NCBI GenBank assembly: GCA_903934295.1
Contig: CAIZNI010000013.1
Location: forward strand, 188,285 to 252,284
Direction of reading: 5' to 3'
Origin: an uncultured beta proteobacterium
GTDB lineage: Bacteria; Pseudomonadota; Gammaproteobacteria; Burkholderiales; Burkholderiaceae_E
Length of the DNA stretch: 64,000 nucleotides
This document shows, in pieces, positions 1-3,405 of the stretch. The first letter of the stretch is position 1, and every line of letters begins with the position of its first letter. Made by a program: the position numbers and the translations under genes. The notes beneath the pieces were generated by a model, which had not been told where the DNA came from, did no database searches, and saw only the letters and a program-made list of their open reading frames with translations.

Positions 1-1458
1 AGGCGCTGCAGACCGGGCCAGTCGAGCCGGGCGAGACCGGCGGCGCCGTGCGCGTTCGCCAGGATGACGACCGGCGCACAGGCAAGGGTTTCGCCGGCAC
101 CGTCGAGCAGGTGCCAGCGCTCGTGGGCCCGGTGCAGCGCGGCGACGAAGGTTCGGGGGCGCCATTCGATGGCGGCGCTGCCGGTGAGCCAGCGATGGCA
201 CAGCTCGGCAGGGTCTACCGCATCGCAGCCCGGCATCCAGAGTCCGCCCCAAGGCAAGGCGATGCCGCTGAGGGCGGATGCCTCGACGGCATCGACCACG
301 CGGGCGAGCGCCGGGTCGATGCCGGCGCGCGCGCACAGCGTGACCTGGGCGACCCGTTCGACTTCCGTGATCGCGAGTTGCAGGCGTCCTAGCGGCCGTC
401 TGGCGGGACGCCAGGGCGCCGCCAGTCGCAGCGCGTGGTGGCTCAGACGGGCAAGGAGATTGTCGTCTGGCGAGAAATGCGGGTGGTCTGCGACCACTGG
501 CTGCCCGCCGCCGGCACCCTCAAGTCCGTCCGCCGAATCCAGCACGGTGACCCGCCAGCCACGATCGGCGAGCACCGCCGCGCAGGCGCAACCCGCGAGT
601 CCTGCGCCGACGACCACCGCATGGCGTGGCGCCGTGGCAGTGGCGGGCCGATCGACTGGTTTGCGGGCTTGCGTGCGGGTCGAGATCAGCAGCGCGGCTG
701 AGCCGGCGGGCGGCTGATCCGGACCGGACTCGCGTGGCGTGAAACCCCTGGCCGTGAATTCGGCCAGCACGGAGGCGGGTTGACCGCTGGCCCACAGCAG
801 CGCGCCAGGCCGGGCAAGGCTGGCCATCGGGCGAGCCAATGCCCGAGCGGCTTCCGGCGTCAGGGGAGCGCCGGGACCCGCGTCAAGGCAGAAGGCGTCG
901 AACGCGGCGGCCAGCTGCGGCAGCATCGCTTGCGCGGGCCCGATGGCCAGCGTGAACCAGGCGCGGCGCGCGTCGGCGTCGCCCCCGGGCAGCGGCAGCC
1001 GGATCCGGTGCAGCCCCTTGCCCGTCGGCGGCCAGTGCGCGAGCAGGGCGGCCGCAACGGGATGCGCCTGAAGCCCCGACTGGGTGAGCGCATCCGTCAG
1101 TGCCTGTTTCGTGGGTGGCTCCGCTTCGATGGCGACATGGTCGAGGTGCCGGGGGCCTTCATCGGCGTGGATGAAGGCGTCGATCGCCGCCAGCAGGATC
1201 GATGGTGTCTTGAAGCCGATTTCCAGAATGGCGAAGGGCGAGTGCGCGCGCCAGGCGGCTGAGCGTGTGCAGCACGCGATCAGGGGGGAGGGCGGGTGGC
1301 CCGGCGGCGGTGAGCAGGACGAGAGAGTCAAGGCGCGCAAGCGGCCCGGTCGGCCGGCAGGGACAGGAAAGGTTCGTGGGCAGCAGGACCTGCCGGCGCA
1401 AGCGCTGCGGGCGGTCTTGGACAGCGGACGTGGGTTGAGGATACAGAGGGTGATTCAT
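1..1458 (-). CDS. mnmC: MnmC-like bifunctional tRNA-modification protein, degenerate, partial at left edge
   Basis: The reading frame is missing from the ORF track because it runs off the window. The N-terminal half resembles the MnmC methyltransferase (FAILEIGFKTP, then HVAIEAEPPTKQAL). The C-terminal half is a clear FAD/DAO oxidoreductase (HAVVVGAGLAG, then SPDDNLLARLS). In MnmC these domains convert cmnm5U to nm5U and then mnm5U at the tRNA wobble position. The SAM loop, normally GFGTG, reads GFKTP, and the conserved DGF-P-NP motif reads DAGPGAP, so methyltransfer is doubtful. The plausible ATG at 1458 (MNHPLYPQ) lies in a different frame from the domain, so a one-base frameshift near 1240-1262 or a sequence error is implied; in-frame TTG at 1340 is the alternative. 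It is divergent from the KfrA-like gene. The family call is good, activity is uncertain. Confidence 0.72.
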
Positions 1459-1520
1459 GACGCCTAGCCTGGAGACGCTCGTTTGCCTTTTCGTTCTGTC
1501 TCTCACTGTCCTAATCGTAG

Positions 1521-1545
1521 TAATATTACGTATTACGTAAGTAAA
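1521..1545. promoter_or_regulatory. AT-rich operator-like site between mnmC-like gene and kfrA-like gene
   Basis: Two abutting copies of ATTACGT (1525-1531 and 1532-1538) overlap the palindrome TTACGTAA (1533-1540) in an AT-rich pocket inside very GC-rich DNA. It lies 20 bases before the ATG of a DNA-binding protein gene and between divergent genes. KfrA-type proteins commonly bind repeats in their own promoter, so autoregulation is a reasonable inference. Confidence 0.5.
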
Positions 1546-1559
1546 AATGATAAACATCG

Positions 1560-2348
1560 ATGAATCCTGATCTGAGTGCCGACATCGAAGCCCTGAAGCG
1601 CCAGTTCCCGAACACTCGCGAGCTGTATCGGGAGGTCTGCGCCCTGCTGTTCTTCCGGCATGGCATCACCCCGACCGCCAGTCGCCTCTACCAGCTGGTC
1701 AAGCGCGGCAGCATGAGTACGCCGACCGACGTCTTGCGGCAGTTCTGGGTCGATCTGCGCGAGAACGCCCGGGTCCGGCTGGACCGCTCGGATCTGCCGA
1801 CCGAGTTGCGTGAACTCGGCGGCGAGTGGCTTTCACGGGTGTGGTCGCTGGCCCAGCAGAGCGCCCAGGCCGAACTTGCACCGATGCGCGACCAGCACGG
1901 TGAGCAGGTCCGCCAGGCCGGTGCCGAAGTTCAGGCGGTCCGGGCCGAACTCGAACGGCTTCGCGAGCGCCTGCGACAGGCGCAGGCCGATCTCGAAGCG
2001 GCGGGTGCGCGAGAAGCCGACGCGGCTCGCGAGCTGGCGACCAACCAGGGTCGAATTGCCTCGATGACGGAAATGCTGCGCGAGACCGCCCAGGAAATGC
2101 AGCGGGTTCGTCAGGAACTGGCGTGGGTTGCGCGCGACGCCGCGCGGGCGACCGGCGAGGCCAATGCGCTGCGCGTGCAACTGGAGCTGGCCAGCCGTCG
2201 CCCGCGTCGTGCGCCGGCTTCGGCGCCGCCGGCCGCCCGCCGCGACAGCCAGGAGGCGCTCGCGCTCGATCCGGTTGCATTTGCACCAGCGAGCGATCAG
2301 CCTTCGCTCATCGTCGATCAACCCCCTGAAGACGTCAGACACCCATGA
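1560..2348 (+). CDS. KfrA-family DNA-binding protein
   Basis: The 262-residue product has an N-terminal helical DNA-binding region (about residues 30-75, with GITPTASRLYQLVKRGSMST) of the KfrA_N type. It is followed by a long alanine/glutamate/arginine-rich coiled coil (about 90-215) and a disordered proline/alanine tail. KfrA proteins of plasmids bind operator repeats and use the coiled coil for oligomerisation; chromosomal copies are common in Burkholderiales and their role is unclear. The start is ATG at 1560 without a clear Shine-Dalgarno sequence, just after an AT-rich palindromic site. The stop codon overlaps the pirin start (ATGA), which indicates translational coupling. Confidence 0.78.
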   Translation: MNPDLSADIEALKRQFPNTRELYREVCALLFFRHGITPTASRLYQLVKRGSMSTPTDVLRQFWVDLRENARVRLDRSDLPTELRELGGEWLSRVWSLAQQSAQAELAPMRDQHGEQVRQAGAEVQAVRAELERLRERLRQAQADLEAAGAREADAARELATNQGRIASMTEMLRETAQEMQRVRQELAWVARDAARATGEANALRVQLELASRRPRRAPASAPPAARRDSQEALALDPVAFAPASDQPSLIVDQPPEDVRHP

Positions 2349-3319
2349 CAGCTGCATTCGATGTCCCGGTCACCCGCACCCTGGCGCGCGTGATTGCCTC
2401 GGTTCCCGCTTCCGACGGCGCTGGCGTGCGGCTTCGACGCAGCATCGGCGCGCAGCCCTCGCATCGGCTCGATCCCTTCCTGATGCTCGACGAGTTCTCG
2501 TCGGAAGACGCCGCCGATTATCTGGCCGGATTCCCGTCGCATCCGCACCGCGGCTTCGAGACGGTCACCTACATGCTCGACGGACACCTGCTGCACGAGG
2601 ATCACCTGGGCAATCGCGGTGACCTGCTGCCGGGGGCGGTGCAATGGATGACCGCCGGCCGGGGAATCATCCACTCGGAGATGCCCCAGCAGCAAAGCGG
2701 ACGCATGCGCGGGTTTCAGCTGTGGCTGAATCTGCCGGCGCGACTGAAGATGCAGCCGGCCTGGTATCGCGATATTGCGCCGGTCGAACTGCCGGTGCTG
2801 GCGCTGCCCGGCGGCGGCCAACTCAAGGTGATCGCGGGGACCGCGCCGATTCCTGAGGCGGCTGGTGCGGTCGCGCCCGGTGCCGTCATGCCGGGAGGCA
2901 GCCGCGCTGCGTTCACTACCCCTCCCGGCGAACCGGACAGCACCCTGATCCGCGGCCCGATCGGCGGGCCTCGCTGGCAGGACTCGACCGATCCGATCTA
3001 CTGGGACCTGATTCTCGAGCCGCATGGTTGCCTGGTCCAACCGCTGCCGGCCGGGCATCAGGCATTCGTCTACCTGTATGAGGGGCAGGCCTGGATTGGT
3101 CCGGCGGACGACCGCTCGGCATTGCCCGCACACGCGGCTGGCGTGCTGAGCGAGGGAACCCAGCTTCGCATCGAGGCGGGCGGGCAGGGGTTGCGCGCGC
3201 TGGTGCTGGCTGCTCGGCCGTTGAAGGAACCGGTGGCGCAGTACGGGCCCTTCGTGATGAACACCCACGAGGAACTCGAGCAGGCGGTGGCGGACTTTCG
3301 CAGCGGCCGGCTGACCTGA
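2345..3319 (+). CDS. Pirin family protein
   Basis: This 324-residue bicupin begins with the pirin metal-binding signature HPHRGFETVTYML (about residues 59-71) and continues with the GAVQWMTAGRGIIHSEMP segment, the usual iron-site histidines of the pirin N-terminal cupin. The C-terminal cupin (about 190-320) is also recognisable. Pirins are iron proteins. Some have quercetinase activity and others bind regulators, so the substrate here is unknown. The ATG overlaps the stop of the KfrA-like gene by four bases. Length is slightly above the usual 280-300 residues. The family call is secure, the function is not. Confidence 0.92.
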   Translation: MTAAFDVPVTRTLARVIASVPASDGAGVRLRRSIGAQPSHRLDPFLMLDEFSSEDAADYLAGFPSHPHRGFETVTYMLDGHLLHEDHLGNRGDLLPGAVQWMTAGRGIIHSEMPQQQSGRMRGFQLWLNLPARLKMQPAWYRDIAPVELPVLALPGGGQLKVIAGTAPIPEAAGAVAPGAVMPGGSRAAFTTPPGEPDSTLIRGPIGGPRWQDSTDPIYWDLILEPHGCLVQPLPAGHQAFVYLYEGQAWIGPADDRSALPAHAAGVLSEGTQLRIEAGGQGLRALVLAARPLKEPVAQYGPFVMNTHEELEQAVADFRSGRLT

Positions 3320-3336
3320 GGGTCCGGCCGGCCGCC

Positions 3337-3405
3337 CCGACGCCCGACGCCCGACGCCCGACGCCCGACGCCCGACGCCCGACGCCCGACGCCCGACGCC
3401 CGACG
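3337..3405. repeat. Heptamer tandem array, CCGACGC x about 10
   Basis: Nine perfect head-to-tail copies of CCGACGC and one copy ending CCGACGA begin 18 bases after the pirin stop codon. The array sits where the promoter or start of the downstream permease would be. Unit length 7 means a copy-number change shifts any reading frame crossing it. Confidence 0.95.

What the first reader, a model, noticed from the sequence alone, without database searches (positions are those of the whole stretch)
1..1458. MnmC-like protein with a broken SAM-binding motif and an apparent frameshift
Seen: the oxidoreductase half is well kept (VVVGAGLAG, SPDDNLLARLS), but the methyltransferase half has GFKTP where GFGTG is expected and DAGPGAP where DGFAPAxNP is expected. 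Also seen: the best start codon is in another frame from the domain. Known: MnmC domains normally act in sequence, and some bacteria split or lose one domain. Inference: this lineage may keep only the cmnm5U-to-nm5U step, or the domain has a changed role.
Basis: partly seen in the sequence, partly recalled or inferred. Interest (0 to 1): 0.6.

Follow-up and report, generated by a model that had tools for sequence, protein, structure and literature searches.

The report
tRNA enzyme with dead methyltransferase half
A two-part tRNA-modifying enzyme (MnmC) in this Burkholderiales bacterium has kept its oxidase half but lost the active site of its methyltransferase half, and the same decay appears to have happened several times independently in related bacteria, so many of them probably finish their tRNAs one step earlier than E. 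coli does.

Summary
On the minus strand (window 1 to about 1340, running off the left edge) lies an MnmC gene whose FAD oxidase half is well kept. Its SAM-methyltransferase half has lost FGxG (FKTP), GFAP after the catalytic Asp, the tRNA-binding Lys and the N-terminal lid. It is not a sequencing artefact: four other genomes of the genus, whole sister genera and many named Burkholderia, Caballeronia, Herbaspirillum and Pararobbsia strains show comparable, differently spelled decay. A tree needs about 12 independent losses (at least 6 on well-supported branches). In 38 'dead' proteins the FAD signature residues are nearly invariant, while the methyltransferase ones are mostly gone.

No stand-alone MnmC2 and no MnmM were found in this genome; MnmE and MnmG are present. 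In Caballeronia, most genomes tested carry a separate intact MnmC2 beside the dead fused domain. The dead domain evolves faster than the oxidase half but still under purifying selection (dN/dS 0.12-0.54), and is predicted to keep its fold.

Best reading: an MnmC1-only enzyme with a retained pseudo-methyltransferase domain, whose product is nm5(s2)U34. The frameshift is unproven: sequence similarity supports the domain's own frame up to about 1289, with TTG starts only.

The parts
1..628 (-). N-terminal part of the MnmC1 FAD oxidoreductase half (continues 553 bases beyond the window's left end, to G000:C13:187732)
   Evidence: DAO E=2e-15, TIGR03197 E=6e-32 on the partial domain; full gene in L001/L004
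681..1289 (-). Decayed MnmC2 methyltransferase domain (pseudo-methyltransferase), fold predicted to be kept
   Evidence: NF033855 E=1e-8, far below cut-off; alignment to E. coli MnmC; AF2 pLDDT about 80-94 over most of it and Foldseek match to MnmC and its N-terminal domain 2QY6
1203..1235 (-). SAM motif I position: FAILEIGFKTP instead of (F)xxxExGFGxG; Ec G68->K, G70->P
864..893 (-). Active-site loop: FCLDAGPGAP instead of FxLDGFAPAxNP; Asp178 kept, G179, F180, P182 lost
507..509 (-). FAD-contact Ser304 (E. coli numbering) replaced by Gly; the one lost signature residue of the FAD half in this genome
1331..1340 (-). Two in-frame TTG codons, the only common start codons in the domain's frame upstream of motif I
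   Evidence: homology in this frame back to about 1289
1159..1458 (-). Out-of-frame ORF from ATG 1458; G+C periodicity of this frame down to about 1235, but no protein homology

Best explanation
This is an MnmC in which only the oxidase works. The FAD half cleaves the carboxymethyl group from cmnm5(s2)U34 of tRNA to give nm5(s2)U34 (inferred from the kept family residues). The methyltransferase half has lost its SAM-binding and catalytic loops and cannot make mnm5(s2)U34 (inferred from sequence; a G68D change alone abolishes this step in E. coli). The half is still translated as a folded, non-catalytic domain, probably because it stabilises the oxidase (inferred). With no MnmC2 or MnmM found in the genome, nm5(s2)U34 is the likely end product. 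The same loss occurred independently several times in Burkholderiales (shown on a gene tree).
For: Motifs lost and FAD residues kept. Over 38 dead proteins, FAD sites G271, G273, R567, G578 and G619 are kept 38/38 and G287, S304, G518 and R653 35-37/38, while F180 is kept 2/38, K236 1/38 and P182 4/38. Independent genomes and named strains show it; 13 state changes on the FAD-half tree, at least 6 forced by starred branches for the dead label. Own genome: no PF05430, no PF06962, no second NF033855 match, MnmE and MnmG present; no MnmM in 74 family genomes. dN in the dead domain relative to the FAD half: medians 1.2-2.9 in dead groups against 0.7-0.9 in intact groups, with FAD omega mostly 0.1-0.28 and dead-domain omega 0.12-0.54, so the oxidase is constrained and the remnant partly so. 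Predicted fold kept. From the literature: the two E. coli domains act independently, separated domains are less stable than the whole protein, and an mnmC(m)-G68D strain converts cmnm5s2U to nm5s2U and competes somewhat better than an mnmC-null strain (PMC3936742); D178, G68 and G70 are described in PMC3648344.
Against: No biochemistry or tRNA mass spectrometry. Ser304, an FAD contact, is Gly in this particular protein, and its nearest relative is only 49% identical, so purifying selection on this very copy was not measured. Asp178 and Glu101 are kept in this copy, so residual SAM binding is not strictly excluded. An unrelated methyltransferase would not be seen by these searches. The start codon is unclear.
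Confidence: 0.68

Rival explanations
1. The methyl step is still made, by an unrecognised or non-homologous methyltransferase that took over and let the fused domain decay, as a separate MnmC2 has apparently done in Caballeronia.
For: Eight of ten Caballeronia-clade genomes tested (G104-G109, G112, G114) have a dead fused domain plus an intact 242-292 aa MnmC2 over cut-off; in the three read, GFGMG, LDGFAPAxNP and GGKRAML are intact. This shows that decay can follow take-over.
Against: In the window's genome, its dead relatives, the six dead Burkholderia cepacia-group genomes, Herbaspirillum and Pararobbsia no second MnmC2 was found; MnmM is absent from the whole family.
Confidence: 0.2
2. The gene is on its way to full loss: the oxidase half too is weakly constrained here, and some related genera have no MnmC match at all.
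For: Genus g16 (4 genomes) has no match at E<=1e-25; Ser304 is Gly in this copy; possible frame problem at the start.
Against: Open frame kept over the whole gene; FAD signature residues and low FAD dN/dS are kept in the dead groups.
Confidence: 0.1
3. Sequencing or assembly artefact (indel) that corrupts a normal MnmC.
For: The best ATG is out of frame and G+C periodicity switches near 1235.
Against: Motif losses lie on both sides of several in-frame conserved segments, in frame with the FAD half, and related genomes with independent assemblies have lost the same residues.
Confidence: 0.02

Closest known systems
Bifunctional MnmC (E. coli YfcK/MnmC, PDB 3AWI/3PS9; NCBIfam NF002480)
   Same: Same two-domain order, same predicted fold over both parts in the window, FAD half with the MnmC1 signature
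   Different: SAM loop FGxG, DGFAP loop, Lys236 and the N-terminal lid lost; scores far under the family cut-off
E. coli mnmC(m)-G68D mutant (PMC3936742)
   Same: Loss of the same glycine; oxidase step retained, nm5s2U accumulates
   Different: Laboratory point mutation in an otherwise intact domain; here a natural, extensive decay
Stand-alone MnmC1 proteins (11 surveyed in PMC3648344)
   Same: Oxidase without a linked working methyltransferase
   Different: They lack the N-terminal domain; here it is kept as a folded remnant
Stand-alone MnmC2 / DUF752 (Aquifex; here in Caballeronia and genus g2)
   Same: Shows that the two steps can be made by separate proteins
   Different: Not found in the window's genome
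MnmM (YtqB, PF06962; PMC9976899)
   Same: Alternative methyltransferase for the same step
   Different: Not found in any of 74 genomes of the family

Membership tests
Bifunctional MnmC (NF002480) | Whole-protein score over the curated cut-off (540 bits) | tested here: not met
   341 bits over positions 43-645 in the genome, 204 bits for the part in the window
Bifunctional MnmC (NF002480) | Two-domain architecture, MnmC2 fold followed by MnmC1 | tested here: met
   One open frame of 668 codons; best fold matches are MnmC structures over 441-452 columns
MnmC2 methyltransferase | SAM-binding F67-G68-x-G70 and D178-G179-F180-x-P182, Lys236 | tested here: not met
   FKTP, DAGPG, Lys absent; only F67 and D178 of these remain
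MnmC2 methyltransferase | Methyl transfer to nm5U34 | not testable with these tools
   Needs enzyme assay or tRNA mass spectrometry
MnmC1 oxidoreductase (TIGR03197) | FAD dinucleotide-binding GxGxxG and conserved G518, R567, G578, G619, R653 | tested here: met
   All kept in the full-length gene
MnmC1 oxidoreductase (TIGR03197) | Ser304 contacting FAD (conserved in 136/141 bifunctional MnmC, PMC3648344) | tested here: not met
   Gly in this protein; kept in 35 of 38 dead-domain proteins
MnmC1 oxidoreductase (TIGR03197) | cmnm5U to nm5U conversion | not testable with these tools
   Needs assay
mnm5 pathway context | MnmE and MnmG present to supply cmnm5U | tested here: met
   TIGR00450 332 bits, TIGR00136 880 bits, both over cut-off

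The most novel reading that the evidence does not exclude
In the window's lineage and in the Burkholderia cepacia group the methyl step is made by a still unknown methyltransferase, so that repeated decay of the MnmC methyltransferase half marks genomes holding a third solution to mnm5U synthesis.
Probability: 0.15. Interest if true: 0.75.

Novelty: new variant of a known kind. Interest (0 to 1): 0.5.

Why it matters
mnm5(s2)U34 is treated as the standard end product of wobble-uridine modification in proteobacteria. Here a whole order has repeatedly dropped the last methylation while protecting the oxidase before it. That gives natural replicates of the E. coli G68D mutant and makes it testable whether nm5U is good enough, or better, under some conditions. 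It also means automatic annotation as 'bifunctional MnmC' may be wrong in many Burkholderiales, and it offers a clear case of an enzyme domain kept after its chemistry is gone.

Tried and rejected
Sequencing artefact: rejected for the motifs, because related genomes share the loss. Separate MnmC2 or MnmM in the genome: none found. Homology of the ATG-1458 frame to the MnmC N-terminus: none found. A first in-register test was off by one residue and void; repeated correctly. No Rfam match in 1-3400 and no tRNA gene within the 19 kb around the gene. A literature search for MnmC with Burkholderia returned nothing relevant in the held library. An idea that loss of mnm5 evades anticodon nucleases was considered and left as speculation: one literature search and no sequence evidence.

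Full report
What is there. The gene lies on the minus strand and is cut by the left end of the window. In the whole genome (G000, 4.6 Mb, 98.5% complete) it is a 668-codon open frame, stop to stop, without internal stops. NCBIfam and Pfam place it in MnmC with a good FAD-oxidoreductase half and a poor methyltransferase half. Aligned to E. coli MnmC, the methyltransferase half keeps Glu101 and Asp178. It has lost Gly68 and Gly70 of the SAM loop (GFKTP), Gly179, Phe180 and Pro182 of the active-site loop (LDAGPGAP), Lys236 and the N-terminal lid with Phe24 and Asp26. The roles of these residues are from PMC3648344. The FAD half keeps all surveyed signature residues except Ser304, which is Gly.

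Start and frame. The only ATG nearby (1458) is in another frame. G+C periodicity upstream of about 1235 follows that frame (P=0.002). However, the 18 residues read in the domain's own frame just upstream of motif I match the same segment of 65 relatives in fixed register (P=0.003), while the other two frames do not. The two weak signals conflict. A late TTG start (1340 or 1331) in a gene that has lost its N-terminal lid is a sufficient explanation; a frameshift is possible but unproven. It does not touch the lost motifs.

Not an artefact, and not alone. Named relatives place the genome in Burkholderiales: G002 and G004 match contigs of MAGs REEB420 and PRO21 by length, and the family includes Lautropia sp. 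SCN 69-89. In the genus, G000, G002, G006, G008 and G009 have a dead methyltransferase half. G001, G003 and G007 are intact, G004 keeps FGLG and DGFEP but has lost Asp26 and Lys236, and in G005 the part is missing. In the family, the members read of genera g15 and g11 are dead, g2 has the two domains as separate genes, and g16 shows no match. Among 80 named loci, the motifs are lost in six Burkholderia cepacia-group species, eleven Caballeronia-clade members (including records still named Burkholderia), one Herbaspirillum and Pararobbsia alpina. That set was chosen by similarity to the query and is not a rate. In an even sample of 200 Burkholderiales genomes, 96 have a match over the bifunctional cut-off, and about 15 match the oxidase half only (profile about 229-644, by my count of the table) with no separate MnmC2 match at E<=1e-30.

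Repeated loss. On a tree of the FAD half (127 rows), the states intact, dead and split need 13 changes; starred branches force at least 6 for the dead label. The tree is a quick one with long branches, so the count is approximate. Burkholderia metallica has an intact methyltransferase half inside a dead clade; recombination or several recent losses could explain it.

Is the remnant still a protein domain? In pairwise comparisons (Nei-Gojobori), the ratio of dN in the methyltransferase half to dN in the FAD half has medians of 1.2-2.9 in dead groups and 0.7-0.9 in intact groups. The dead domain's dN/dS is 0.12-0.54, below 1, and the FAD half stays mostly at 0.1-0.28 in dead groups. Pairs are not independent and dead-domain alignments are less sure. 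AlphaFold2 predicts the remnant with pLDDT about 80-94 over most of it, and the best PDB matches are full MnmC structures and the isolated MnmC2 domain 2QY6; the alignment fed to it includes intact homologues, which can favour the family fold. So chemistry was lost before the fold. A stabilising role is inferred from the finding that separated E. coli domains are less stable in vivo (PMC3936742).

What does the cell make? MnmE and MnmG are present. No second MnmC2 and no MnmM were found in this genome, and no MnmM in 74 genomes of the family. With the oxidase alone, the expected product is nm5(s2)U34, as in the E. coli mnmC(m)-G68D strain, which is viable and competes somewhat better than an mnmC-null strain (PMC3936742). 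In Caballeronia the picture differs: eight of ten genomes tested also carry a separate intact MnmC2 whose nearest relatives in the set are Paraburkholderia and Trinickia fused domains, about 60-68% identical. There the fused domain is redundant. An equivalent but unknown replacement in the window's lineage cannot be excluded.

Verdict. The frameshift is unproven. The new element is scale: recurrent loss of the MnmC methyltransferase active site in Burkholderiales with the oxidase protected and the dead domain retained. I found no report of this in the held literature, which is incomplete.

Noticed in passing
L202, L203, L204 (Caballeronia genomes G105, G114, G112): Stand-alone intact MnmC2 genes of about 245-275 codons coexist with a fused MnmC whose methyltransferase half is dead: apparent relocation of the methyl step to a separate gene.
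   Followed up: partly
L129 (Burkholderia metallica): FAD half groups inside the dead Burkholderia cepacia clade, but the methyltransferase half is intact and 73% identical to B. multivorans, whose FAD half is only 63% identical: possible domain-level recombination or several recent losses.
   Followed up: partly
window 3336-3405: Perfect tandem array of ten CCCGACG units, just after a pirin-like gene and before an EamA-like transporter gene.
   Followed up: no
G018 and G022 (L098, L099): Long, very divergent FAD-half proteins with N-terminal parts that no longer resemble MnmC2.
   Followed up: no
L030 (G059, another Burkholderiales family): DSSSPAKN and FWGECEM in place of DGFxPAKN and FGxKREM: partial decay of the methyltransferase active site outside the family, with FGIG kept.
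   Followed up: no
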